From Arthrobacter sp. B3I4 (GTDB lineage: Bacteria; Actinomycetota; Actinomycetes; Actinomycetales; Micrococcaceae): 64,000 bases of DNA. Shown piece after piece: positions 52,387 to 64,000 of this stretch. The translations under genes were made by a program, and so were the position numbers. The notes beneath the pieces were generated by a model. It was not told where the DNA came from and made no database searches. It was given only the letters and a program-made list of their open reading frames with translations. Location: assembly GCF_030816855.1 (NCBI RefSeq), contig NZ_JAUSYK010000001.1, positions 930,001 to 994,000 on the forward strand, in the 5' to 3' direction. Within the stretch, counting starts at the first letter, position 1; each line of letters begins with the position of its first letter.

Positions 52387-53763
52387 GTGGCACCCCCTCC
52401 GCCCTTCCAGGCCACCGAACCGCAGCCCGACCAGCTGCAGCAGGTTGCCCCGCCGCCCGCCGCTCAGCCCACGACCCAACCCATCGGCGTCGTGCCGGAC
52501 CGGTTGCCATGGCGGCATACCTTCATTTCACTAAAAGTCCGCAACTTCCGGATCTTCGCCGTCGGGCACTTCATCGCCGTCATCGCGCTCTGGATGCAGC
52601 GGATCGCCCAGGACTGGCTGGTGCTCCAGCTATCCGGATCCGTCACCGCCGTCGGCGTAACCGTGGCCCTGCAGTTCCTGCCCTCGCTCTTCCTTGGCCC
52701 CTGGGCGGGAATGATGGCGGACCGCTTCGCGAAGCGCAGGATCCTGATGCTGTGCCAGTCCGTAGCCGCAGTCCTCGCGGCAATTCTCGCGACCCTTGCG
52801 CTGTCGCAGCGGATTGAGGTCTGGCACGTGTACGCCATCGCGCTGACCCTGGGCCTGGTCACCGTGCTGGACCAGCCGGCCCGCCAGGTCTTCGTCAACG
52901 AACTGGTCGGCCCGGTCTACCTGCGCAACGCCATCAGCGTGAACTCCACCATCTTCCAGCTCGGCGGCCTGATCGGCCCGGCGTTCGCAGGAATCCTGCT
53001 CGGCGCCGTGGGGGCCGGCTGGGCCTTCGCGGCCAACGCCGTGGCGTGCTGCTCCACGGTGACCATGCTGCTGATCCTGCGCAGGGACGAACTGCACATC
53101 GCGCTGCCGGCGCCCAAGCGCAAGGGCATGCTCAGGGAAGGGCTGCGGTACGCGCTGAGCAAGCCGACGATCTACTGGCCGTGGCTGATGGCCGGCTTCG
53201 TCTCCGTGTTCGCGATGAGCCTGCCGGTGCTGCTGGCGGCTTTCGCTGACCATGTGTACGACGTCGGCGCCGGAGGCTACGGACTGCTCAACGCCCTCGT
53301 GGCGCTCGGGGCCCTGGCGGGGGCCGTTACTTCCGCGCGGAGGCGGCAGCTCCGGCTGCGTTCCGTCATGCTGGCTGCCGGGATGTATGGGCTGATGCTC
53401 TGCCTTGCCGCCGCGGCGCCGTCGATGGCGTGGTTCGGCGCGGCGATGGTGCTGGCCGGCTTCTGGTGCCTGATGTTCCTCACCGCCGCCAACCAGCTGG
53501 TCCAAACCAGCGCCAACATGGGGATCCGCGGGCGGGTGATGAGCCTGTACATCATGGTGCTGATCGGCGGCCAGGCCATCGGCGGCCCACTGATGGGCTG
53601 GCTGGCGGAACACCTTGATCCACACACGGCCGTACTGGTCGCGGGCGGGGTACCTGCGCTGGCCGCGGCGACGGTCGCCGTCGTGCTGGCCCGGCGCGGC
53701 CAGCTGATGCTCAGGGTGGATGTCAGGGACCGGCGGCGGCTGCTGCGGATCGTCCGGGCCTAG
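52387..53763 (+). CDS. MFS transporter, EntS/DHA3-like
   Basis: 458 aa, GTG start with GAGGA 7-8 nt upstream. A 45-residue Pro/Gln-rich cytoplasmic N-terminus precedes 12 predicted membrane helices. MFS_3-type motifs: GPWAGMMADRFAKRRILMLCQS (motif A) and LDQPARQVFVNELVGPVYLRNAISVNSTIFQLGGLIGPAFAGILL. Probably an exporter of a drug, siderophore or metabolite; substrate unknown. Its 3' end overlaps the opposite-strand dehydrogenase gene by 41 bp. Confidence 0.9.
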   Translation: MAPPPPFQATEPQPDQLQQVAPPPAAQPTTQPIGVVPDRLPWRHTFISLKVRNFRIFAVGHFIAVIALWMQRIAQDWLVLQLSGSVTAVGVTVALQFLPSLFLGPWAGMMADRFAKRRILMLCQSVAAVLAAILATLALSQRIEVWHVYAIALTLGLVTVLDQPARQVFVNELVGPVYLRNAISVNSTIFQLGGLIGPAFAGILLGAVGAGWAFAANAVACCSTVTMLLILRRDELHIALPAPKRKGMLREGLRYALSKPTIYWPWLMAGFVSVFAMSLPVLLAAFADHVYDVGAGGYGLLNALVALGALAGAVTSARRRQLRLRSVMLAAGMYGLMLCLAAAAPSMAWFGAAMVLAGFWCLMFLTAANQLVQTSANMGIRGRVMSLYIMVLIGGQAIGGPLMGWLAEHLDPHTAVLVAGGVPALAAATVAVVLARRGQLMLRVDVRDRRRLLRIVRA

Positions 53764-54928
53764 CTTTCGCGCCGGCGACCGGCAGGTGCGGGTAAGCGCG
53801 CTGGCGTCGTTGGAAGGCGAGAACGTCTGGATTGAGCACCACCCCGTCGCGGATTTCGATGGCGCGGCGAATGGTCTCGTTGCCGTCCCAACCTTCGGGT
53901 CCGGACAATACCGTCGCTAGGAACGGCAGCAGCGCCTCGCTGATTTCCCAGCTGGCGGAGTTCCAGAGGTAGGACGGGCTGTGGTCCACCGCGTAGTAGT
54001 CGACGTGGCCGCCGACCGTGAACATGGGCTCAGTGAACGACGTCGTTCTAGCCCAGCTGAAGCCCATGCCCTCGTCGCAGGACACGTCCACGATCAGGCT
54101 GCTCGGCCGGAAGGCGTCCAGGTCCTCGGGGCGCAAGTAGGTCAACGGCGCGTTCGGGTTCTGCAGGGTGCAGTTGACCACGATATCGCTCCCGGCGAGA
54201 AACGGCGCCAGCGGAACCCGTCCTCGTTCGGTGATGACTTCGCTGAGGTACGGCGCCTCGCCGTCGTGGTCGAACTGCGCGATCCGCACGGAATGGATGG
54301 GCGAACCTACCGCGGCGACCCCTCGGTTGGTCAGCACCTGCACGTCATGGACGCCGTGGGCGTTCAGCGCCGTCACGGCGCCGCGGGCGGTCGCACCGAA
54401 TCCAATGACGACGGCGCTCAGCCGGCGGCCGTAATCACCGGTGGTGCCGGTCAGGGACAGGGCGTGCAGCACCGAGCAGTAGCCGGCCAGCTCATTGTTC
54501 TTGTGGAAAACGTGCAGGCCGAAGCCGCCGTCGCTGGCCCAGTGGTTCATCGCCTCGAACGCGATGAGGGTGAGCTTTTTGTCGATCGCGAGTTGGGTAA
54601 TCGCCGAGTCCTGGACGCAGTGCGGCCAGCCCCAAAGGACCTGCCCGTCGCGCAGTTCGGCGAGGTCCTCCGGCTGTGGCTTGGGCAGTAGCACGACGTC
54701 GGCGTCAGCCAGCAGCTGCGTCCGCGGGGCGATCTGGCCTACGATGTCGGCCAAATCGGCGTCCGTCATGCCGAAACGCTCGCCGTAGCCCTCTTCCACG
54801 ATCAGCTGCTGCCGGAGTTCCGGTGCGATGCGTTCGAAGTGGCGGGGATGAATGGGGAGCCGGCGTTCGTCGGGTTTGCGCGTGGTGGCGAGGACTCCCA
54901 GGGTTAGACCGCCTGATGAACCGGTCAC
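53723..54928 (-). CDS. Alanine-dehydrogenase/N5-(carboxyethyl)ornithine-synthase-like protein
   Basis: 401 aa, GTG start overlapping the stop of the upstream small gene (GTGA). N-terminal domain resembles the AlaDH/PNT and CEOS group (ERRLPIHPRHFERI, VLLPKPQP, LWGWPHCVQD). The Rossmann part has VVIGFGATARGAVTALNAHGV. DVSCDEGMGFSWARTTSFTEP is typical of CEOS-like enzymes, which reductively condense pyruvate with ornithine or lysine. Substrate here is inferred. The C-terminal Ala-rich tail lies within the 41-bp antisense overlap with the MFS gene. Confidence 0.75.
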   Translation of the reverse strand: MTGSSGGLTLGVLATTRKPDERRLPIHPRHFERIAPELRQQLIVEEGYGERFGMTDADLADIVGQIAPRTQLLADADVVLLPKPQPEDLAELRDGQVLWGWPHCVQDSAITQLAIDKKLTLIAFEAMNHWASDGGFGLHVFHKNNELAGYCSVLHALSLTGTTGDYGRRLSAVVIGFGATARGAVTALNAHGVHDVQVLTNRGVAAVGSPIHSVRIAQFDHDGEAPYLSEVITERGRVPLAPFLAGSDIVVNCTLQNPNAPLTYLRPEDLDAFRPSSLIVDVSCDEGMGFSWARTTSFTEPMFTVGGHVDYYAVDHSPSYLWNSASWEISEALLPFLATVLSGPEGWDGNETIRRAIEIRDGVVLNPDVLAFQRRQRAYPHLPVAGAKARPGRSAAAAAGP

Positions 54929-55438: not shown

Positions 55439-56353
55439 GTGGTAAAAAACCAGGCGCTGCCGGCCGTCGATGCGGATGCCGTGCCGGACGGTGCTGGCTC
55501 CGTCCCGCGCCTGCCCCCGCGCCACCAGCAGCTTATCGTCACGATCTACGGCCTGTACGGCCGCTCCACCGGCGGCGCCGTGCCCGTCTCGGTGCTGATT
55601 TCCATGCTGGACGACCTCGGCGTCGAATCCTCCGGGGTGCGCTCGTCGGTTTCCAGACTAAAGCGCCGCGGTGTGCTGGAAAGCGTCAAGCAGGGCGGCG
55701 TGGCCGCCTATCGGCTGGCGCCGAACCTGGAGGATGTCTTCCAGGAGGGGGACCGCCGCATCTTCTCCCCGCGACGGGCCACGGCGGCCGACCGCTGGCT
55801 GCTTATCGCATTCTCCGTCCCTGAGTCGCAGCGGCACCTGCGCCACCAGTTGCGCAGCATCCTGACCAGGATGGGCTTCGGATCGGTAACCCCCGGCCTA
55901 TGGATTGCACCCGGCAATACCTATGAAGACATCAGTCACCAGCTAGAGCGGACCGGGCTGACCGAGTACGTGGAGTTTTTCAAAGCCGAGCATCTCACGG
56001 CCGGGGACATCAAGGACAAGGTTTCGCGGTGGTGGGACCTGCCGGCGCTCGAATCGCTCTACGCCGAATTCATCGACAGGTTCGCCCCGGTGCTTGCCCG
56101 CTGGGAGTCAGGAGACGCAGGCTCCCGGCCGGACTCCGACCGTGCGGCTTTCGCCGACTACGTCCAGCTCCTCACCCAGTGGCGCCGCCTGCCGTATTTG
56201 GACCCGGGCCTGCCGGAGGAATTCCTGCCTCCGGGCTGGCACGGGCTCACCGCCGAACGGACTTTTGCTGAGCTGCACCGGCTCCTTAACGGCCCGGCCC
56301 GCCAGCATGCAGAGCGGCTGCTGGCGGGTCCGGGAGGTGCGGGCGCCGTCTAG
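55439..56353 (+). CDS. PaaX-family transcriptional regulator
   Basis: 304 aa, GTG start, GAGGA about 11 nt upstream. N-terminal winged helix (LPPRHQQLIVTIYGLYGRSTGGAVPVSVLISMLDDLGVESSGVRSSVSRLKRRGVLES), then a PaaX central domain (DRWLLIAFSVPESQRHLRHQLRSILTRMGFGSVTPGLWIAPGN) and C-terminal domain. PaaX proteins are repressors released by aryl-CoA thioesters such as phenylacetyl-CoA. Here it heads a cluster containing an aryl-CoA ligase, so an aminobenzoyl- or salicylyl-CoA effector is likely. An 11-codon ORF at 55410 lies in its leader. Confidence 0.9.
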   Translation: MVKNQALPAVDADAVPDGAGSVPRLPPRHQQLIVTIYGLYGRSTGGAVPVSVLISMLDDLGVESSGVRSSVSRLKRRGVLESVKQGGVAAYRLAPNLEDVFQEGDRRIFSPRRATAADRWLLIAFSVPESQRHLRHQLRSILTRMGFGSVTPGLWIAPGNTYEDISHQLERTGLTEYVEFFKAEHLTAGDIKDKVSRWWDLPALESLYAEFIDRFAPVLARWESGDAGSRPDSDRAAFADYVQLLTQWRRLPYLDPGLPEEFLPPGWHGLTAERTFAELHRLLNGPARQHAERLLAGPGGAGAV

Positions 56354-56368
56354 GCTCCTGACCGGGCT

Positions 56369-56770
56369 CTATCCCTGCCCGGCCACAACGGCGATCGCCT
56401 GGATCTCGATCAGTGCTTCGGCCTGCCAGAGCCTGGTGACGCCCACGCCAGCCATCGCGGGGTAGTCGGTTCCTGCCATTTCGCGCCAGAGCCGCCCGAT
56501 CTCGCGTCCGTTCTTCTGGTAGTCCTCGACGTCGGTCAGGTAGATGGTGACGTTGACCAGGTCCGAGGGCTGGCCGCCGGCTTCGGCCAGCGTAGTGAGG
56601 ACGTTGGCGAAGCACTGGCGGAACTGCTCCACAATGCCGCCCGGAACAATGTCCCCGTTTTTGTCCATCGCCGTCTGGCCACCCAGGTACACGGTGTTGC
56701 CGGCCAGGACGCCGTGGGCAAAGCCGGAGGGCTTGGCCAGGGCCGCTGGGTTGATGACCTTGTGGTTCAT
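56369..56770 (-). CDS. RidA-family (YjgF/YER057c/UK114) protein
   Basis: 133 aa, ribosome binding site GAGGAG 5-6 nt before the ATG. Starts MNHKVINPAALAKPSGFAHGVLAGNTVYLGGQTAMDKNGDIVPGG. Typical RidA deaminases carry a conserved Arg in the pocket; here the region near YPAMAGVGVTRLWQAEALIEIQAIA contains TRLWQ with Arg and Glu in the usual places. RidA proteins hydrolyse enamine/imine intermediates. Divergent from the FAH gene; in this context it may hydrolyse the aminocyclohexenyl-CoA enamine made by the monooxygenase/reductase. Confidence 0.88.
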   Translation of the reverse strand: MNHKVINPAALAKPSGFAHGVLAGNTVYLGGQTAMDKNGDIVPGGIVEQFRQCFANVLTTLAEAGGQPSDLVNVTIYLTDVEDYQKNGREIGRLWREMAGTDYPAMAGVGVTRLWQAEALIEIQAIAVVAGQG

Positions 56771-56897
56771 GGTGGCTCCTCAGTGAGTCGAAAACTAGCA
56801 AGGGAATCCGAACGTCTACGCCCGGCCGGCGCAAGCCCGGCGGAAGATTTGGAACGCTCCGGTCTATTCAAAGCCGTGGATTCGTGTTAAGTTGAGC

Positions 56898-56928
56898 ATA
56901 TGTGACGACCGTAAAAATGTCGACATAT
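56898..56928 (+). promoter_or_regulatory. Inverted repeat between RidA and FAH genes, probable operator
   Basis: ATATGT-GAC (56898-56906) and GTCGACATAT (56919-56928) form an imperfect dyad (one C bulge) in the 239-bp divergent region. TTGAGC (56893-56898) overlaps it, so a regulator here would block transcription of the catabolic genes. PaaX is the nearest candidate. Confidence 0.5.
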
Positions 56929-57009
56929 CCTTTCCGGGAGTGCCGCCATACGCCCGTCATGAGAGCCGGCAAAGGTGCCGGTTCCGCCGTCGAACCGGAA
57001 GTGAAGAAG

Positions 57010-57876
57010 ATGCGCCTTGCGACCGTCATAACCGCACCCGACGCCGGTGCTGGACCCGCCACCAGCGCTGCCGTGCAGGTGGGGGACCGCTTCGTGCTGC
57101 TGGCAGCACGGGACCTCAGTGAACTGCTGGGAAACGCCGACTGGCAGGAAACGGCGGCGGCCGCGATCGCAGCGGACAGGTCCGGCGGCGGCGCCGGTGG
57201 TTCCATCCCCCTTACCGACGTCCATTTCGCCACCGTGTTGCCGTGGCCGTCCAAGGTCATCTGCTGCGGCCTGAACTACGCCGACCACATCACAGAAATG
57301 GGCAGGGAGCTGCCGGAGTTCCCCACCCTGTTCGCCAAGTTTGCGGACACGCTGATCGGCGACGGTGACGTCATTGACGCGACCGGCAACGGCGCCAAGC
57401 TGGACTGGGAAGCCGAACTGGCCGTCGTCGTCGGCGCCCCGCTCAGGAACGCGTCGCCCGAGGAAGCCGCTGCCGCGATCGCCGGCTACACGGCCGCCAA
57501 CGACATCTCCATGCGCGACTGGCAGAACCGCACCCTGCAGTGGTTCCAGGGGAAGGCCTTCGACCGCACCACGCCGCTCGGCCCGGTGCTGGTCACCCCG
57601 GATGAGTGCGATCCGGAAGCCGGCGTCCAAGTCCGTTGCCTGGTCAACGGCGAAGTGGTCCAGGACGGCAACACGAAGACCCTTGTTTTCAGCGCGCCGG
57701 CCCTGCTGTCCTACATCTCCACCTTCACCAGGCTCCGTCCCGGCGACGTCGTCCTCACCGGCACCCCCGGCGGGGTCGGCATGGGCGCCGTCCCGCCCCG
57801 ATTCCTGCACGACGGCGACGTCGTGAGCACCGAGATCGAGGGCATCGGCACCCTCACCAACGCGGTCAAGCTCTAA
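57010..57876 (+). CDS. Fumarylacetoacetate-hydrolase-family protein
   Basis: 288 aa from the ATG of MRLATVITAPDAG; an earlier GTG at 56902 would add an unlikely N-terminus lying in the operator. FAH core: KVICCGLNYADHITEMG, FPTLFAKFADTLIGDGDVID, DWEAELAVVVG (metal-binding Glu pair), GYTAANDISMRDWQ, KAFDRTTPLGPVLVTPDE, VVLTGTPGGVGMG. FAH enzymes cleave C-C bonds or hydrolyse acylpyruvates with Mg. In this cluster it would act late in ring catabolism (for example fumarylpyruvate or a ring-opened dicarboxylate). Confidence 0.92.
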   Translation: MRLATVITAPDAGAGPATSAAVQVGDRFVLLAARDLSELLGNADWQETAAAAIAADRSGGGAGGSIPLTDVHFATVLPWPSKVICCGLNYADHITEMGRELPEFPTLFAKFADTLIGDGDVIDATGNGAKLDWEAELAVVVGAPLRNASPEEAAAAIAGYTAANDISMRDWQNRTLQWFQGKAFDRTTPLGPVLVTPDECDPEAGVQVRCLVNGEVVQDGNTKTLVFSAPALLSYISTFTRLRPGDVVLTGTPGGVGMGAVPPRFLHDGDVVSTEIEGIGTLTNAVKL

Positions 57877-57915
57877 GCCGCGCCGTCCTACCGCCCCGCA
57901 GAGAGAGGTATCACC

Positions 57916-58365
57916 ATGACAGAACAGATCAGCCAGCAGGTGACCGACCAGGTTGTCCCCGTTGTCACCCGCAAGGGGGCAGAGCACCGCGACACCGGCC
58001 AGTCCGGCGGCGCCGTCCGGATCTCCGGCGTAAGCACCCAGCACACCCCTGCTACAAAGATCTGGTACGGCCAGGTCAGCAACGAACCCGGCTACCGCTC
58101 ATTCCCGCACCACCATGGCGAGGCGGAGACCGGCGGCTACGTGCTGCGCGGCCAGGGACGGATCTACTTCGGCGAGGATTACAAAGAATTCCTTGATATG
58201 ACCGAGGGTGACTGGGTCTTCGTCCCGCCGTATATGCCGCACGTGGAAGCTAACATGAGCACCACCGAGGAGCTCGTCTGGCTCACCGCCCGCACCCCCG
58301 AGAACATCGTGGTGAACCTCGACGACGTCGACGACTCCACGCTCGAAGGGTACCGCCGGGTATGA
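57916..58365 (+). CDS. Small cupin-domain protein
   Basis: 149 aa, AGAGAGG before the ATG. Single cupin: motif 1 FPHHHGEAETGGYVLRGQGRIYFG with His-His-Glu-type ligands, motif 2 GDWVFVPPYMPHVEAN with the second His. Too short for a classical gentisate 1,2-dioxygenase (about 350 aa), so it could be a metal-dependent ring-modifying enzyme, an isomerase or a binding protein. Its stop overlaps the thioesterase start (ATGA). Confidence 0.85.
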   Translation: MTEQISQQVTDQVVPVVTRKGAEHRDTGQSGGAVRISGVSTQHTPATKIWYGQVSNEPGYRSFPHHHGEAETGGYVLRGQGRIYFGEDYKEFLDMTEGDWVFVPPYMPHVEANMSTTEELVWLTARTPENIVVNLDDVDDSTLEGYRRV

Positions 58366-59234
58366 ACCCGACGTCGGAGATCCTCCTGTCCGCCCTCAAA
58401 CTGACCCCTGCCGAGCCGGACTTCCTCGACGAGGCCTATACCGCCACGACGCAGTACGTGCCGTGGCCCAAGGCCTACGGCGGGGACATGGTGGCCCAGG
58501 CCGCCGCCGCGGCTATGCGCTCAGTAGGGGATGACCGCTCGCTGCATTCGATGCACAGCTACTTCATGCGGCCGGCGGACATCGGCGCCGAGGTCCGGTA
58601 CGAGGTGGAGCGCCTCCGGGACGGGCGCGGCTACTCCACCCGGCAGGTCCGCGCCTACCAGGGCGGCAAGACCGTCTACGTGGCCATGGCCTCCTTCCAC
58701 GCGGAGGAGTCCGGCGCGGAATTCGCCCGGGCCATGCCGGCCGGCATCCCTGATCCGGAGTCCCTGCCTTCCTCCGCCGACGTGCTCGACGGCGTCGGCG
58801 GGGACGCTGCGGCCTACTGGGCCGGCGGACGCAGCTTCGACATGCGGCACGTTCCCGGCGCCGTCTACCTCAGCGTTGAGGGGGAACAGGTGCCGCACCA
58901 GGCCGTCTGGGTCAAGGCCTTTGACCGGCTGCCGGATGACCCTGACTTGCAGCGGGCAGCCCTGGCCTACGTTTGCGACTACACCATCCTGGAACCGGTG
59001 CTCCGCGTGCACGGCTACGCCTGGGCCGACCCGGACCTGGTCACGGCAAGCCTGGACCACGCCATGTGGTTCCACCGGGAAGGCCGCGTGGACGACTGGC
59101 TGCTCTACGTCCAGGAAGCCGTCTCGGCGCAGGCCAACCGCGGACTCGCCCAGGGTCACTTCTACGACCGGCAGGGCAGGCTCCTCGCCACGGTGGTCCA
59201 AGAAGGCATGATCCGGAAATCCGCTGCTCCGTAA
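58362..59234 (+). CDS. TesB-like acyl-CoA thioesterase (double hotdog)
   Basis: 290 aa. Two hotdog repeats: the N-terminal half has YGGDMVAQAAAAAMRSVGDDRSLHSMHSYFMRPADIGAEVRYEVERLRDGRGYSTRQVRAYQGGKTVYVAMASFH, the TesB signature. The C-terminal half has VCDYTILEPVLRVHG, SLDHAMWFHREGRVDDWLLY and RGLAQGHFYDRQGRLLATVVQEGMIR, with the catalytic Asp/Gln region. Hydrolyses acyl- or aryl-CoA to the free acid. Coupled to the cupin gene by a 4-nt overlap, hence part of the same operon. Confidence 0.92.
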   Translation: MNPTSEILLSALKLTPAEPDFLDEAYTATTQYVPWPKAYGGDMVAQAAAAAMRSVGDDRSLHSMHSYFMRPADIGAEVRYEVERLRDGRGYSTRQVRAYQGGKTVYVAMASFHAEESGAEFARAMPAGIPDPESLPSSADVLDGVGGDAAAYWAGGRSFDMRHVPGAVYLSVEGEQVPHQAVWVKAFDRLPDDPDLQRAALAYVCDYTILEPVLRVHGYAWADPDLVTASLDHAMWFHREGRVDDWLLYVQEAVSAQANRGLAQGHFYDRQGRLLATVVQEGMIRKSAAP

Positions 59235-59276
59235 GTGCCCTTTTGGCCCGTCCAAACGGCCGTTTCGGAGGACTCG

Positions 59277-59309
59277 ATGAACGCCCCGCCCCTATCAATG
59301 ACGATATGA
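59277..59309 (+). CDS. Possible 10-aa leader ORF before the CoA ligase
   Basis: GGAGG (59267-59271) sits 5 nt before an ATG encoding MNAPPLSMTI and a TGA, out of frame with the ligase start 11 nt further on. The Shine-Dalgarno is stronger than the ligase's own GAAAGG. A palindrome AACGGCCGTT (59256-59265) precedes it. Leader peptide or chance. Confidence 0.3.
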   Translation: MNAPPLSMTI

Positions 59310-59319
59310 AAGGCCTGCC

Positions 59320-60969
59320 ATGGATCTGACGCCCACGGCGCACCAGGACACTTTTGCCCGTGACAACCTGCCTCCGGCAGAGCAGTGGCCCGCCCTGGAG
59401 TTCACGCTTCCGGAACTCCAGTACCCGCAGCAGCTCAACGCGGCCACTGTACTGATCGACGACGCGGTCCGTAGCTTCGGTGCCGACCGCCCAGCCCTGC
59501 TCACCCCGGACGGCGGGTCCTGGAGCTACGGGGAGCTGCAACGGCACGCCAACCAGGTGGCCCAGGTCCTGGTCGAGGACTTCGGGGTCGTCCCCGGCAA
59601 CCGCGTGATGCTGCGCTCGCCGAACAACCCCTGGCTCGTCGCCGCGTGGCTGGGTGTGCTCAAGGCCGGCGCCGTGGTGGTGACGATCATGCCCGCCCTC
59701 CGCGTGAAGGAAATCCGGACCCTGCTGGAGCTGACCCGGCCGTCCGCCGCCCTCTGCGACAGCCGCTTCCTGGCGGACCTGGTTGAGGCCGCAGGCCGTG
59801 AGGTCCCGGTACTGGCCGTGGGCGGCAACACGGAAACTGATCTGATCGCCCGCTGCGCAGCCAAGAGCGGTGAGTTTTCCGACGTCCCGACGGCGGCAGA
59901 TGACGTCGCGCTGTTCGGCCCGACCTCGGGAACGACCGGGACGCCGAAGATCACGATGCATTTCCACCGCGACATCCTCGCCAACGCGGACACTTTCGCC
60001 CGGCACATCCTCCAGCCCTCCCCGGAGGACATCTTCGCCGGGTCCCCGCCCCTGGCTTTTACCTTCGGGCTGGGGGGCCTCGTCGTCTTCCCGCTCCGCT
60101 TCGGTGCCGCCGCGTTGCTGACCGAACGCGCCACGCCGCTCGAATTGGCGCAGGCAGTGCACGCGGCGAAAGCCACCATACTGTTTACCGCTCCGACGGC
60201 CTACAAGGCGATCCTCAAGGAAGGCGCCGAGGGTCTGCTCGCCAGCCTCCGGACCGCCGTTTCGGCTGGCGAACACCTGCCCGCCGAAACCTGGCGAGCC
60301 GTTCACGAACGAACGGGCTTGAAGCTAATCAATGGCATCGGTGCCACCGAAATGCTGCACGTCTTCATTTCCGCGGCCGGGGACGATATCCGTACCGGTG
60401 CCACCGGCACGGCCATCCCCGGCTACCGCGCCACGATCCTCGACGAGGACGGCCGGGAGCTGGGCCCGAACGCCGTCGGGCGCCTCGCCGTGATTGGTCC
60501 CACCGGCTGCCGCTACCTTAACGATCCCCGCCAGGCGGACTACGTCGTGGACGGCTGGAACGTTACCGGTGACACCTTCAGTCGGGACGATGACGGCTAT
60601 TTCTACTACCAGGCACGCTCCGACAACATGATCGTGTCCTCGGGGTACAACATCGGCGCGCCCGAGGTGGAAGCGGCGATCGACCAACACCCGGGTGTGA
60701 TGGAAAACGCTGTCGTCGGCAGGCCCGACCCGGACCGCGGCAGCGTGGTCTGTGCCTTCATCGTTCTCCGCGAAGGCGTTGAGGGCGACGACGCGAAGCG
60801 CAAGGAAATCCAGGACTTCGTGAAGCAGGCCATCGCTCCGTACAAGTACCCCAGGCAGGTGAACTTTGTCGCCGAACTGCCCCGCAATCCGAGCGGCAAG
60901 CTTCAGCACTTCCGGCTGCGCGAGCAACTGGCTGCTGACAGCGCCGCCCCCGAACCCCAGAACGTCTGA
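59320..60969 (+). CDS. Aryl-CoA ligase, 2-aminobenzoate/benzoate-CoA ligase type
   Basis: 549 aa AMP-forming ligase. The AMP-binding P-loop is PTSGTTGTPKITMHFHRD; the HFHRD extension is typical of the 2-aminobenzoate/benzoate-CoA ligase group. Other motifs: FTFGLGGLVVFPL, INGIGATEMLHVFIS (A5), GWNVTGDTFSRDDDGYFYYQARSDNMI (A7-A8), and terminal Lys in PRNPSGKLQHF (A10). Activates an aromatic acid to its CoA thioester for the following flavoprotein. The position directly before the fused monooxygenase matches the anthranilate and salicylate CoA pathways. Confidence 0.9.
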   Translation: MDLTPTAHQDTFARDNLPPAEQWPALEFTLPELQYPQQLNAATVLIDDAVRSFGADRPALLTPDGGSWSYGELQRHANQVAQVLVEDFGVVPGNRVMLRSPNNPWLVAAWLGVLKAGAVVVTIMPALRVKEIRTLLELTRPSAALCDSRFLADLVEAAGREVPVLAVGGNTETDLIARCAAKSGEFSDVPTAADDVALFGPTSGTTGTPKITMHFHRDILANADTFARHILQPSPEDIFAGSPPLAFTFGLGGLVVFPLRFGAAALLTERATPLELAQAVHAAKATILFTAPTAYKAILKEGAEGLLASLRTAVSAGEHLPAETWRAVHERTGLKLINGIGATEMLHVFISAAGDDIRTGATGTAIPGYRATILDEDGRELGPNAVGRLAVIGPTGCRYLNDPRQADYVVDGWNVTGDTFSRDDDGYFYYQARSDNMIVSSGYNIGAPEVEAAIDQHPGVMENAVVGRPDPDRGSVVCAFIVLREGVEGDDAKRKEIQDFVKQAIAPYKYPRQVNFVAELPRNPSGKLQHFRLREQLAADSAAPEPQNV

Positions 60970-60979
60970 GAGGCATCAC

Positions 60980-63361
60980 ATGAAAATCGCAATCATCGGC
61001 GGCGGTCCGGGCGGACTGTACTTCGCCGCCCTCATGAAACAGCTGGATCCGAAGCACGAGGTCACCGTCTGGGAGCGGAACGCCGCGAGCGACACCTTCG
61101 GTTTCGGTGTTGTCTTCAGCGACGAGACTCTCGGCGGCATCGGCAACGCGGACACCGTGATCGCCGAGTACATGTCCAAGCGTTTTGCCCGCTGGACGGA
61201 CATTGACATTCATTTCCGGGGTGAGCAGCACACGGTCGGCGGCCAGGGCTTCGCCGCCATGAGCCGCAAGGAACTGCTCGAGCTGCTGCAGCACCGCTGC
61301 GCCGAACTGGGCGTGGACCTGCGTTTCAGCACCCTCGCCCCGGACGTCGAGGAACTCAGCAGCGACTACGACCTCGTCCTTGCCGCCGACGGCGTGAACT
61401 CCGCCGTCCGGTCCCGCTTCGCCGACGTTTTCCAGCCAAGCCTGGACGTCCGCAGGTCCAAGTACATGTGGCTTGGCACCGACCTCGTGTTTGAGGCGTT
61501 CAAGTTCTTTGTCAAGGAAACCGAACACGGCACCATGCAGATCCACGGCTACCCTTACTCCGACCAGGGCAGCACCTTCATCGTCGAAATGCACGAGGAT
61601 GTGTGGCGCCGCGCCGGTTTTGACGCCACCGAGGACCAGGCCTTCAAGCCCGGCGAAAGCGACGAGGCGGCCGTGGATAAGATTCGTGAACTTTTCGCCA
61701 CGGAACTCGAGGGCCACGAGGTCCTGGTCAACAACTCCAAGTGGCTCAACTTCACCACCGTCCGCAACGAGTCCTGGCGGCACGGCAACATCGTGCTCCT
61801 CGGTGATGCCGCCCACACGGCCCACTTCTCCATCGGCTCCGGCACCAAATTGGCGATGGAGGACTCCCTGGCCCTGGCCGCCTGCCTGCATGAACACGCC
61901 GAACTCGGGGCCGCCCTGGAGGCCTACGAAACTGAACGCAGGCCCGTCGTCGAGTCCACCCAGCGCGCCGCGCAGGCATCGCTGGAATGGTTCGAGAACA
62001 TTGGCATGTACAAGGACCAGAACCCGGTCCAGTTCTGCTTCAACCTGCTCACCCGCAGCCGCCGGATCACCTACGACAACCTCAAGCTGCGAGATCCCGA
62101 GTTCGCAGCCCGGGTGGACGAGGAATTTGCCCGCAGCCAGGGCATTGCGTCCAGCGCACCTGCCATGTTCCAGCCCTACCGCATCGGCGGGCTGGAACTC
62201 AAGAACCGGATCGTCGTCTCGCCGATGGACATGTACTCGGCAACCGACGGCGTGCCGGGTAACTTCCACCTCGTCCACCTCGGCAGCAAGGCCCTCGGCG
62301 GCGCCGGCCTGGTGATGACCGAGATGGTCTGTGTGTCCGAAACCGGCCGCATCACGCCAGGCTGCAGCGGGCTCTATAACGACGTGCAGCAGGAGAGCTG
62401 GCGCGAAATCGTCGAGTTCGTACACACCCGGTCGACGGCGGCTCTCGGCGTCCAGCTGGGGCATTCAGGCCGGAAGGGTTCGACCAAACTCATGTGGGAA
62501 GGCATCGATGAGCCGCTCCCGGACGGCGGCTGGGAGCCGGTAGGCCCATCGGCAGTTCCCTACGGCCCGGGCAGCCCGGCGCCGCGCGAAATCGGCCGCA
62601 CCGAAATGGACGAGATCCGGGACGAGTTCGTCGCGGCCAGTGTCCGGGCTGCCGCTGCCGGCTTCGACCTGCTGGAATTGCACTGCGCGCACGGCTACCT
62701 CCTGTCGGCCTTCCTCTCCCCGCTGGCCAACCGTCGCACCGACGAATACGGCGGATCGCTGGAAAACCGGCTGCGGTACCCGCTGGAGGTGTTCGACGCC
62801 GTCCGCGCTGCCTGGCCCGCCGACCGGCCGATGACCGTGCGGCTCTCCGCCACGGACTGGGCACCCGGCGGCAACGACGAGCATGATGCCGTCGCGATTG
62901 CCCGGGCGTTCGTGGAGCACGGCGCCGACGGCGTGGACGTTTCCTCGGGCCAGGTGGTCAAGGAGGAGAAGCCGGCGTATGGCCGGAGCTATCAGACGCC
63001 GTTCGCTGACCGGATCCGGCAGGAGGTGGCGCAGAAGGCGGGCGCGGCCGTGATCGCGGTGGGGGCGGTGTCCTCCTACGACGATGTGAACTCGATCCTG
63101 CTGGCAGGCAGGGCGGACCTCTGCGCCCTCGGCCGCACGCACCTGTTCGATCCGCAGTGGACCCTGCACGCGGCGAGCGAGCAGGATTACCGCGGGCCCG
63201 GTGCAGACTGGCCACAGCAGTTCCGGGCCGGCAGCCGGAAGCCTCCGGCAGCCCGCACCGACGCCGTCCGGCCCCGGCTGGCGCTGGTGCGTGAGCCGGA
63301 ACTGGCAGAACTGCCGACACATCTGCGCTGGACGCCCGCGAAAGAAACGGCTTCGGTCTAG
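60980..63361 (+). CDS. Fused aryl-CoA flavin monooxygenase / old-yellow-enzyme reductase (2-aminobenzoyl-CoA or salicylyl-CoA type)
   Basis: 793 aa from the ATG of MKIAIIGGGPGGLYFAALMK, GAGAGG 7 nt upstream. Residues 1-385 are a PHBH-type FAD monooxygenase (GGGPGG, AADGVNSAVRSRF, LLGDAAHTAHFSIGSGTKLAMEDSLALA). Residues about 395-793 are an NADH:flavin oxidoreductase barrel (MFQPYRIGGLELKNRIVVSPMDMYSA, VQLGHSGRKGS, LHCAHGYLLSAFLSPLANRRTDEYGGSLENR). This two-domain form is that of 2-aminobenzoyl-CoA monooxygenase/reductase of Azoarcus, annotated elsewhere as salicylyl-CoA 5-hydroxylase/oxidoreductase. It hydroxylates C5 and may reduce the ring. Confidence 0.92.
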   Translation: MKIAIIGGGPGGLYFAALMKQLDPKHEVTVWERNAASDTFGFGVVFSDETLGGIGNADTVIAEYMSKRFARWTDIDIHFRGEQHTVGGQGFAAMSRKELLELLQHRCAELGVDLRFSTLAPDVEELSSDYDLVLAADGVNSAVRSRFADVFQPSLDVRRSKYMWLGTDLVFEAFKFFVKETEHGTMQIHGYPYSDQGSTFIVEMHEDVWRRAGFDATEDQAFKPGESDEAAVDKIRELFATELEGHEVLVNNSKWLNFTTVRNESWRHGNIVLLGDAAHTAHFSIGSGTKLAMEDSLALAACLHEHAELGAALEAYETERRPVVESTQRAAQASLEWFENIGMYKDQNPVQFCFNLLTRSRRITYDNLKLRDPEFAARVDEEFARSQGIASSAPAMFQPYRIGGLELKNRIVVSPMDMYSATDGVPGNFHLVHLGSKALGGAGLVMTEMVCVSETGRITPGCSGLYNDVQQESWREIVEFVHTRSTAALGVQLGHSGRKGSTKLMWEGIDEPLPDGGWEPVGPSAVPYGPGSPAPREIGRTEMDEIRDEFVAASVRAAAAGFDLLELHCAHGYLLSAFLSPLANRRTDEYGGSLENRLRYPLEVFDAVRAAWPADRPMTVRLSATDWAPGGNDEHDAVAIARAFVEHGADGVDVSSGQVVKEEKPAYGRSYQTPFADRIRQEVAQKAGAAVIAVGAVSSYDDVNSILLAGRADLCALGRTHLFDPQWTLHAASEQDYRGPGADWPQQFRAGSRKPPAARTDAVRPRLALVREPELAELPTHLRWTPAKETASV

Positions 63362-63364
63362 TAA

Positions 63365-63802
63365 CTAGCCCTGGCGGGCGGTGATTCTGGCTCTGAATTC
63401 GGCCGGCCACGGGCTCGCGGCCTTTGCGCCGCGAGCCACGTGGGCCGTGACAAAGGAGCCGTGGGCGGCCAGGGCGCGGGGTTCACCGCCGAATTCCTCG
63501 CCCCACACTTCAAAGCTGAACGTCATGGACGCGCCGCCGATCTTCTCCACCACTACGGTGGTGGTAACCCGCTGGCCGAAGAACAACTTCGCCCGGTAGT
63601 TGAGCTCCTGGCGAACCCGGGGCGCCGAAGGGAAGTACTCCGGCAGATCCAGGTCCCGGAACAGCTTGGCCTCGCAGGCCTCGACAAAACGGAGTACCGC
63701 CGAATTGTGCTGGTGCCCCGCCGCATCGGTGTCCACCCATTCAATGGTCCGCTCCAGGGTTGCCGTCGTGGCAGCGCCGGGGAGGGGTTGCACGGGGTTC
63801 AT
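63365..63802 (-). CDS. Single-hotdog acyl-CoA thioesterase (4-hydroxybenzoyl-CoA thioesterase type)
   Basis: 145 aa. The N-terminal EWVDTDAAGHQHNSAVLRFVEACEAKLFRDL carries the Asp of 4HBT-type thioesterases, followed by LNYRAKLFFGQRVTTTVVVEKIGGASMTFSFEVWG. Likely hydrolyses an aromatic or alicyclic CoA thioester of the pathway, for example gentisyl-CoA to gentisate if the substrate is salicylate. Its stop is 3 bp from the stop of the convergent monooxygenase gene, with no terminator between them. Confidence 0.88.
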   Translation of the reverse strand: MNPVQPLPGAATTATLERTIEWVDTDAAGHQHNSAVLRFVEACEAKLFRDLDLPEYFPSAPRVRQELNYRAKLFFGQRVTTTVVVEKIGGASMTFSFEVWGEEFGGEPRALAAHGSFVTAHVARGAKAASPWPAEFRARITARQG

Positions 63803-63882
63803 GGGGGCCGCCTGAAAGTTCGAAGAGAAGTCAGCAACAGTGCAGTTCGTAGCAGCTGCATTACTCGATGGAAGGTAAGTCC

Positions 63883-64000
63883 ATGGTAGTAGGTTCCCCT
63901 GTTTCCTCCGCCGTCCCGGCCGGCCCCGCGCATTCGCCGGCGGCCACGGTCGCGCAGCTCGTGGGTCAGACCCTGGCGGAGCTCGGCGTCGGCCATGTCT
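63883..64000 (+). CDS. Start of a thiamine-diphosphate-dependent enzyme (truncated by window end)
   Basis: ATG at 63883 with GGAAGG 7 nt upstream; an in-frame ATG at 63868 would add 5 residues. The visible 39 residues end with ATVAQLVGQTLAELGVGHV, the N-terminal helix and strand that open acetolactate-synthase-like TPP enzymes. Divergent from the thioesterase gene. If it belongs to the island, it could act on a ring-derived ketone or 2-oxo acid; this cannot be settled from 39 residues. Confidence 0.65.
   Translation, partial: MVVGSPVSSAVPAGPAHSPAATVAQLVGQTLAELGVGHV

What the first reader, a model, noticed from the sequence alone, without database searches (positions are those of the whole stretch)
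55439..64000. Aerobic aryl-CoA catabolic island centred on a fused monooxygenase/OYE protein
The gene set is PaaX, RidA, FAH hydrolase, cupin, TesB thioesterase, aryl-CoA ligase, fused FAD monooxygenase-OYE, hotdog thioesterase and a TPP enzyme. Two known schemes fit. (1) Anthranilate to 2-aminobenzoyl-CoA, then hydroxylation and ring reduction (Azoarcus type); RidA would hydrolyse the enamine product. (2) Salicylate to salicylyl-CoA to gentisyl-CoA to gentisate, ring cleavage by a cupin enzyme, then FAH hydrolysis (Streptomyces Sdg type). The cupin (149 aa) is too small for classical gentisate dioxygenase, and RidA plus the OYE half favour scheme 1. The actual route after the fused enzyme, with a small cupin, FAH and TPP enzyme, may not have been described.
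Basis: partly seen in the sequence, partly recalled or inferred. Interest (0 to 1): 0.72.

Follow-up and report, generated by a model that had tools for sequence, protein, structure and literature searches.

The report
Anthranilate breakdown cluster, alternative lower half
A soil bacterium carries a gene set for breaking down anthranilate (a tryptophan breakdown product) whose first half is of a known type but whose second half appears to use three other enzymes in place of the expected fat-type degradation enzymes, pointing to a shorter route that has not been tested.

Summary

I compared 87 loci with a relative of the fused enzyme. Class A, 31 loci including this one and plasmid pAL1 of Arthrobacter Rue61a, has the small cupin: TesB 31, RidA 30, FAH 28, ECH/ACAD/gentisate dioxygenase 0. 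Class B, 45 loci, has ECH and/or ACAD (beta-oxidation type). Class C, 6 loci, has gentisate dioxygenase and no RidA. Five fit none.

The old-yellow-enzyme triad H568/H571/Y573 is intact in 81 of 87 and broken in exactly the six class C proteins, so the window's enzyme should reduce the ring. The pAL1 ligase (74% identical) activates anthranilate (PMC3534580).

The new element is the lower half. I propose RidA deaminates the ring, the cupin opens it, TesB frees the acid, and FAH gives succinate plus pyruvate. The gene set and its exclusivity are shown in this sample; the chemistry is inferred (about 0.4). One relative (L025) has no cupin match in its genome. The TPP enzyme is not core (6 of 31). 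New variant of a known kind.

The parts
55439..56353 (+). PaaX-family transcriptional regulator
   Evidence: Three PaaX Pfam domains over cut-off; below the cut-off of the phenylacetate repressor equivalog TIGR02277 (162.8 of 264.6 bits)
56369..56770 (-). Divergent Rid-family protein, proposed enamine hydrolase
   Evidence: PF01042; below TIGR00004 cut-off (61.9 of 106.3 bits); archetypal Arg position is Met or Leu in 30 of 30 class A proteins
56903..56914 (+). TGACGACCGTAA, possible PaaX-type operator in the RidA/FAH divergent promoter (motif recalled)
   Evidence: Only hit in the window with up to one mismatch, 2.8 expected by chance; 17 of 31 class A loci have a hit within 350 bp upstream of RidA against 4.4% of random 392-bp stretches
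57010..57876 (+). FAH-family hydrolase, proposed acylpyruvate (succinylpyruvate) hydrolase
   Evidence: PF01557 238 bits; closest paralog in the own genome is the FAH beside the gentisate dioxygenase homolog
57916..58365 (+). Single-domain cupin, proposed ring-opening enzyme
   Evidence: PF07883; H65, H67, E71, H109 invariant in 90 rows; model pLDDT 84.5
58362..59234 (+). TesB-like acyl-CoA thioesterase
   Evidence: PF02551, PF13622, PF20789; below TIGR00189 cut-off (233 of 292.9 bits)
59320..60969 (+). Aryl-CoA ligase, proposed anthranilate-CoA ligase
   Evidence: Benzoate-CoA ligase family best, 344.5 of 375.3 bits; 74% identical to the pAL1 ligase
60980..63361 (+). Fused FAD monooxygenase / old-yellow-enzyme reductase, proposed 2-aminobenzoyl-CoA monooxygenase/reductase
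   Evidence: NF006101 1230.6 bits, cut-off 1078; OYE triad H568/H571/Y573 intact
63365..63802 (-). Hotdog thioesterase, accessory (20 of 31 class A loci)
   Evidence: PF13279
63868..64000 (+). Start of a TPP-dependent enzyme that continues beyond the window (to L004:11625); not core
   Evidence: best NCBIfam match 215.5 of 620 bits; 6 of 31 class A loci

Best explanation
The cluster breaks down anthranilate as CoA thioesters. The ligase makes anthraniloyl-CoA. [quoted passage not shown] The divergent Rid protein hydrolyses this enamine to 2,5-dioxocyclohexanecarboxyl-CoA and ammonium. The lower half is then not the beta-oxidation type of the Azoarcus scheme but a cupin/TesB/FAH module. Most likely chemistry of that module (about 0.4): the cupin uses O2 to cleave between C1 and C2, giving 2,4-dioxopimeloyl-CoA; TesB releases 2,4-dioxopimelate (succinylpyruvate); FAH splits it into succinate and pyruvate, the dihydro version of the gentisate route. 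A PaaX regulator acts at the RidA/FAH promoter. Shown here: the gene set, its exclusivity in the sample, the intact reductase site. Shown elsewhere: the activity of a 74% identical ligase. Inferred: every catalytic step in this organism, above all the Rid, cupin, TesB and FAH steps. The confidence given is for an anthranilate pathway whose lower half is this module, not for the detailed chemistry.
For: Same cassette on pAL1; its ligase activates anthranilate, and anthranilate-grown Rue61a cells hold CoA esters of C7H7NO3 and C7H8O4 acids (PMC3534580). C7H8O4 is the formula of the acid that the Rid step would give. OYE triad intact in 81 of 87, broken only in the six class C proteins. RidA in 30 of 31 class A and 37 of 45 class B loci; of 7 loci with a gentisate dioxygenase gene, 1 has RidA. 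Cupin never with ECH/ACAD (0 of 31 against 45 of 56) and always with TesB (31 of 31 against 1 of 56). In 396 phylum genomes the 3 cupins above 45% identity (one of them the window's own) all lie in this cassette. FAH closest to the own gentisate-linked FAH. Kynureninase-like gene and tryptophan dioxygenase side by side in the genome. Kynureninase or tryptophan dioxygenase near 4 of 31 class A cassettes and the quinolone dioxygenase aqdC1 near one more.
Against: L025 keeps ligase, fused enzyme, RidA, FAH and TesB but its genome gave no cupin match at E <= 0.001. Three class A loci lack a nearby FAH, though their genomes hold 7, 10 and 7 other FAH matches. The cupin's predicted fold does not favour a dioxygenase. 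Thioesterase action on a beta-keto thioester could cause decarboxylation. The pAL1 ligase gene is matched to the tested ARUE_113p00220 by gene order only, and Rue61a without the plasmid still grows on anthranilate through chromosomal paralogs, so the pAL1 module is not proven necessary there. Class C ligases are also 59-62% identical to the window's, so ligase similarity alone does not fix the substrate. The sample leans to close relatives and the tables are not corrected for relatedness.
Confidence: 0.68

Rival explanations
1. Same front end, but hydrolytic ring opening: FAH acts like the ring hydrolase BadI (recalled) and opens 2,5-dioxocyclohexanecarboxyl-CoA to 4-oxopimeloyl-CoA; TesB releases 4-oxopimelate; the cupin is an accessory, an isomerase or a lyase.
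For: L025 has FAH and TesB without any cupin match in the genome. The nearest folds of the cupin model are mostly lyases, a cyclase and binding proteins. FAH enzymes hydrolyse C-C bonds (family knowledge).
Against: Cupin and TesB are in 31 of 31 class A loci by TesB count while FAH is missing near 3. The route to central metabolism after 4-oxopimelate would need further enzymes not in the cluster. The FAH's closest own paralog is the gentisate-linked one.
Confidence: 0.2
2. Aromatic variant: the fused enzyme releases 5-hydroxyanthraniloyl-CoA, TesB frees 5-hydroxyanthranilate, the cupin cleaves the ring, RidA deaminates the open chain (as 2-aminomuconate deaminases do, recalled), and FAH finishes.
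For: A C7H7NO3-CoA, presumed hydroxyanthraniloyl-CoA, occurs in anthranilate-grown Rue61a (PMC3534580). The cupin has a very weak match to 5-aminosalicylate 1,2-dioxygenase (20.4 bits, cut-off 650). A gentisate-type anthranilate route via 5-hydroxyanthranilate is reported for Nocardia opaca (review PMC4539516, passages).
Against: The reductase site is intact in class A. RidA also accompanies class B, which has no such cupin. Rue61a did not grow on 5-hydroxyanthranilate, only cometabolic conversion.
Confidence: 0.08
3. One reading: salicylate to salicylyl-CoA, gentisyl-CoA, gentisate and ring cleavage (Streptomyces Sdg type, recalled).
For: NCBI names the family 'bifunctional salicylyl-CoA 5-hydroxylase/oxidoreductase'. 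The genome holds a gentisate dioxygenase homolog (269 of 442 bits) with an adjacent FAH elsewhere. Class C ligases are 59-62% identical to the window's.
Against: Class C loci, which fit this scheme, carry the dioxygenase, lack RidA (by definition) and TesB, and have a broken OYE triad; the window's cluster differs on all four. Rue61a, with the same cassette, did not grow on salicylate or gentisate.
Confidence: 0.04

Closest known systems
Quinaldine/anthranilate cassette of plasmid pAL1 (pARUE113), Arthrobacter sp. Rue61a
   Same: Same genes and order from RidA to the fused enzyme; 77% (fused) and 74% (ligase) identity; same promoter motif place
   Different: No TPP gene beside it; a second PaaX; PaaX and hotdog strands differ; next to quinaldine genes. 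The roles of its RidA, FAH, cupin and TesB are not discussed in PMC3534580 as far as the terms 'cupin' and 'RidA' show (0 hits)
2-aminobenzoyl-CoA pathway of Azoarcus evansii
   Different: There later steps are attributed to beta-oxidation enzymes; here ECH and ACAD are absent from the cluster and the class B ECH family does not reach its cut-off in the genome
Streptomyces Sdg-type salicylate pathway (class C loci)
   Same: Related ligase and fused enzyme, a FAH, often a hotdog gene
   Different: Class C has gentisate dioxygenase, no RidA, no TesB, and a decayed reductase site
Gentisate ring cleavage (gentisate 1,2-dioxygenase plus maleyl-/fumarylpyruvate hydrolase)
   Same: Proposed logic: a cupin cleaves C1-C2, a FAH splits an acylpyruvate
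   Different: The substrate here would be a ring-reduced CoA thioester; the cupin is single-domain with no TIGR02272 match at E <= 0.001; product would be succinate in place of fumarate or maleate
Small oxygen-cleaving cupins such as Dke1 and acireductone dioxygenase (recalled)
   Same: Single small cupin domain; diketone- or enediol-type substrates
   Different: No sequence match to them was listed at E <= 1; Dke1 is recalled to bind metal by three His, here three His and a Glu are invariant

Membership tests
NF006101, fused monooxygenase/OYE (2-aminobenzoyl-CoA monooxygenase/reductase type) | Score over the curated cut-off across both domains | tested here: met
   1230.6 bits, cut-off 1078, residues 39-805 of 831
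NF006101, fused monooxygenase/OYE (2-aminobenzoyl-CoA monooxygenase/reductase type) | Intact OYE active-site triad, needed for ring reduction | tested here: met
   H568, H571, Y573
NF006101, fused monooxygenase/OYE (2-aminobenzoyl-CoA monooxygenase/reductase type) | Conversion of anthraniloyl-CoA | not testable with these tools
   Needs an assay
Aerobic 2-aminobenzoyl-CoA pathway, Azoarcus type | Beta-oxidation-type genes (ECH, ACAD) for the lower half | tested here: not met
   None in the cluster; ECH family NF006107 best 123 of 330 bits in the whole genome
Salicylate (Sdg-type) pathway | Gentisate dioxygenase gene in the cluster | tested here: not met
   0 of 31 class A loci; the own homolog lies at 2.79 Mb
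Salicylate (Sdg-type) pathway | Salicylate as ligase substrate | not testable with these tools
   Needs an assay
Gentisate 1,2-dioxygenase | Bicupin of about 336 profile positions, TIGR02272 | tested here: not met
   149 aa; no TIGR02272 match at E <= 0.001
Archetypal RidA (TIGR00004) | Family score and the substrate-binding Arg (Arg105 in E. coli, recalled) | tested here: not met
   61.9 of 106.3 bits; Met or Leu in 30 of 30 class A proteins
PaaX phenylacetate repressor (TIGR02277) | Equivalog cut-off | tested here: not met
   162.8 of 264.6 bits; the three PaaX Pfam domains are met
Acylpyruvate hydrolases of the FAH superfamily | Closest relatives act on acylpyruvates | tested here: inconclusive
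   Best NCBIfam match is 2,4-didehydro-3-deoxy-L-rhamnonate hydrolase at 178 of 500 bits; gentisate-linked paralog closest in genome; tree unresolved
Oxygen-cleaving single-domain cupins | Conserved cupin metal-binding motif | tested here: met
   H65, H67, E71, H109 invariant in 90 rows; shared by many non-oxygenase cupins too
Oxygen-cleaving single-domain cupins | Dioxygenase activity | not testable with these tools
   Fold matches are led by lyases and binding proteins, tied within about 1 Z

The most novel reading that the evidence does not exclude
A further lower branch of aerobic anthranilate degradation, present in several actinobacterial families: a 'dihydrogentisate' route in which a small cupin opens the ring-reduced thioester 2,5-dioxocyclohexanecarboxyl-CoA with O2, and TesB and FAH turn the product, via succinylpyruvate, straight into succinate and pyruvate. 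It would include a new ring-cleaving cupin family and a Rid subfamily acting on a CoA-bound cyclic enamine.
Probability: 0.4. Interest if true: 0.75.

Novelty: new variant of a known kind. Interest (0 to 1): 0.55.

Why it matters
The first steps of CoA-dependent anthranilate breakdown are known, but the one actinobacterial study I could read (passages of PMC3534580) stops at a presumed cyclohexanedione-carboxyl-CoA. The recurring gene set names candidate enzymes for the rest and gives each a testable step. The reductase-site test also suggests that NCBI's family name 'salicylyl-CoA 5-hydroxylase' misleads for most members of this sample: 81 of 87 have the intact reductase site expected of anthraniloyl-CoA enzymes, and only 6 look like salicylate enzymes. 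Anthranilate arises from tryptophan, quinaldine and bacterial quinolone signals, so the route bears on soil nitrogen cycling and signal breakdown.

Tried and rejected
Salicylate scheme: tested by OYE residues, RidA and gentisate dioxygenase presence, and rejected. TPP enzyme as core: rejected (6 of 31). FAH tree: unresolved, with two long-branch own paralogs whose frames were probably cut badly; pairwise scores were used instead. First cupin model from 30 close relatives was poor, pLDDT 46.8; a 90-row alignment gave 84.5. Fold searches of the cupin did not decide between lyase, cyclase and dioxygenase; Dke1 is not among the 50 rows shown of either, which proves nothing. Neighbours of the 38-45% identical paralogous cupins gave no functional hint (10 neighbouring frames scanned). 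Inverted repeats in the 239-bp divergent promoter: none of 10 or more bases. A ligase tree did not separate substrates clearly (only its head was printed). Literature searches for the lower route found only PMC3534580 naming the intermediate; the pAL1, Azoarcus and MeqR2 papers are not held, so they could describe more.

Limits of the counts. Class A was set by the cupin, B by ECH or ACAD, C by gentisate dioxygenase without RidA, so those features are true by definition within a class; the 2x2 tables use the features directly. Matches needed tblastn E <= 1e-6 and 35% of the query. The ECH and ACAD queries come from L010, itself one of the 45 class B loci; L028 is in class B through a 32% ECH match and also has gentisate dioxygenase, FAH and RidA with an intact OYE triad. 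At under 80% identity 37 remain: 15 A, 14 B, 4 C, 4 unclassified. Short contigs can hide genes.
Full report
WHAT IS THERE. The window lies at 930001-994000 of a one-contig 3.61-Mb genome. The TPP gene continues past the window and an aromatic acid/H+ symporter-like gene follows. FAH most likely starts at 57010, not 56902, because relatives start with MRLAT. TesB overlaps the cupin by four bases. RidA and FAH are divergent.

THE CLOSEST STUDIED CASE. Plasmid pAL1 of Arthrobacter sp. Rue61a carries RidA(-), FAH, cupin, TesB, ligase and fused enzyme in the same order, with PaaX genes on both sides and a hotdog gene after them. Identities to the window are 77% for the fused enzyme and 74% for the ligase. 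In passages of PMC3534580 the ligase ARUE_113p00220 and a chromosomal paralog showed anthranilate-CoA ligase activity in E. coli; I match that tag to the pAL1 ligase by gene order. Anthranilate-grown cells held anthraniloyl-CoA and CoA esters of C7H7NO3 and C7H8O4. The strain grew on anthranilate and not on salicylate, gentisate or 5-hydroxyanthranilate (the last was cometabolised). A strain without the plasmid still grew on anthranilate, ascribed to chromosomal paralogs. The words cupin and RidA do not occur in the main text.

THREE KINDS OF CLUSTER. I scanned the named genome collection with an alignment of six fused enzymes and kept 80 loci, adding the own locus and six plasmid loci: 87 in all. 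Neighbours were found by tblastn with the window's proteins and with genes of an Azospirillum cluster. Class A, 31 loci with the cupin: TesB 31, RidA 30, FAH 28, hotdog 20, TPP 6, kynureninase or tryptophan dioxygenase 4, ECH 0, ACAD 0, gentisate dioxygenase 0. Class B, 45 loci with ECH and/or ACAD: ECH 40, ACAD 37, RidA 37, cupin 0, TesB 0, FAH 1. Class C, 6 loci with gentisate dioxygenase and no RidA: FAH 6, hotdog 5, TesB 0. Five loci fit none (L025, L038, L040, L066, L089). Tested directly, cupin and ECH/ACAD never share a locus (0 of 31 against 45 of 56) and cupin goes with TesB (31 of 31 against 1 of 56); these tables are not corrected for relatedness. On the tree of the fused enzyme, 29 class A rows and L025 group together (support 94) while L035 and L037, with another gene order, lie apart, so the module does not simply follow one enzyme lineage. 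Class B fits the published Azoarcus scheme, in which later steps are attributed to beta-oxidation enzymes (review PMC4539516, passages).

THE REDUCTASE SITE SEPARATES THE TWO SCHEMES. The OYE half carries the motif of YqjM-type enzymes (residue roles recalled). H568, H571 and Y573 are all intact in 81 of 87 proteins. The six exceptions are exactly the six class C proteins: H568 is Q in 5, Y573 is H, F or Q in 6, E448 is G in 5, Q658 is E in 6. Class C should make gentisate, which needs hydroxylation only, so decay of the reductase fits. L069 lies apart from the other class C proteins in the tree and shows its own partial decay. The window's protein is intact, so its product should be ring-reduced, which speaks for the anthranilate scheme.

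RidA. Of 7 loci with gentisate dioxygenase 1 has RidA (L028); of 80 without, 69 have it. If RidA acts on nitrogen at a step shared by A and B, that step is the enamine made by the fused enzyme. The place of the archetypal arginine is Met (27) or Leu (3) in 30 of 30 class A proteins and Met in 36 of 38 class B rows, the other two not being readable by the pattern. That arginine binds the substrate's carboxylate in archetypal RidA (recalled); here the carboxyl group would be a thioester, so its loss is compatible, no more.

FAH. Within its own genome the window's FAH is closest to the one beside the gentisate dioxygenase homolog: 45.9% over 290 residues, 235 bits, against 147 and 103 bits for the two others. 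This favours an acylpyruvate substrate but is weak evidence; a tree did not resolve the point, and three class A cupins with FAH (L014, L019, L071) pair with a more distant FAH, 39-42% identical.

REGULATION. A site TGACGACCGTAA lies at 56903-56914 in the RidA/FAH promoter, the only hit to TGACGNNCGTCA with up to one mismatch in the window; 2.8 are expected by chance, so only its place is telling. pAL1 has a hit in the same place and a perfect one before its hotdog gene. Of 31 class A loci 17 have it within 350 bp upstream of RidA, against 4.4% of random 392-bp stretches, and class B has 0 of 45. I recall the motif and a response to anthraniloyl-CoA from work on the Rue61a repressor MeqR2; no paper in the library names it.

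THE HOST. A kynureninase-like gene (242.1 bits, just under the cut-off of 246.4) and a tryptophan 2,3-dioxygenase lie side by side near 3.13 Mb, so the cell can probably make anthranilate. No antA match was found. The class B ECH family reaches 123 of 330 bits at best.

MECHANISM. Anthranilate is activated, hydroxylated and reduced, then deaminated to 2,5-dioxocyclohexanecarboxyl-CoA, whose acid is C7H8O4, the formula seen in Rue61a. Oxygen cleavage between C1 and C2 would give 2,4-dioxopimeloyl-CoA, TesB would free succinylpyruvate, and FAH would give succinate and pyruvate. This uses every conserved gene and loses no carbon. It mirrors gentisate cleavage at the dihydro level. It is inference. 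The main result against it is L025, whose genome gave no cupin match while the other genes are kept.

VERDICT. Observation confirmed. Anthranilate rather than salicylate: about 0.88. The cupin/TesB/FAH set as the lower branch, given that: about 0.75-0.8. The O2-dependent chemistry: about 0.4.

Noticed in passing
53723-54928 (-): A 401-aa frame that by eye resembles N5-(carboxyethyl)ornithine synthase or alanine dehydrogenase; not searched.
   Followed up: no
L067, L069, L070, L085, L087, L090: In clusters with gentisate dioxygenase and no RidA the reductase half of the fused enzyme has lost catalytic residues, apparently in two lineages (L069 apart from the rest).
   Followed up: partly
L028 (Geodermatophilus telluris): A mixed locus: gentisate dioxygenase and FAH about 7 kb upstream of RidA, ligase and a fused enzyme with intact reductase site.
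   Followed up: no
L025 (Nocardioides sp. SLBN-35): Cassette with FAH and TesB adjacent but no cupin between them and no cupin match in the whole genome.
   Followed up: partly
L004:9868-11625 and L013, L015, L017, L077, L011: A TPP enzyme (67-83% identical) recurs beside the cassette in six Micrococcaceae loci, in both orientations; best family match far below cut-off, role unknown.
   Followed up: partly
L006 (Arthrobacter sp. ERGS1:01 plasmid): The cassette there looks damaged in the record: TesB matches in two pieces, FAH only in part, and no genes are annotated for them.
   Followed up: no
L103-L129, L096-L099: A large uncharacterised cupin family (30-45% identical to the window's, HHHGxxE motif) is scattered through Actinomycetota outside this cassette.
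   Followed up: partly
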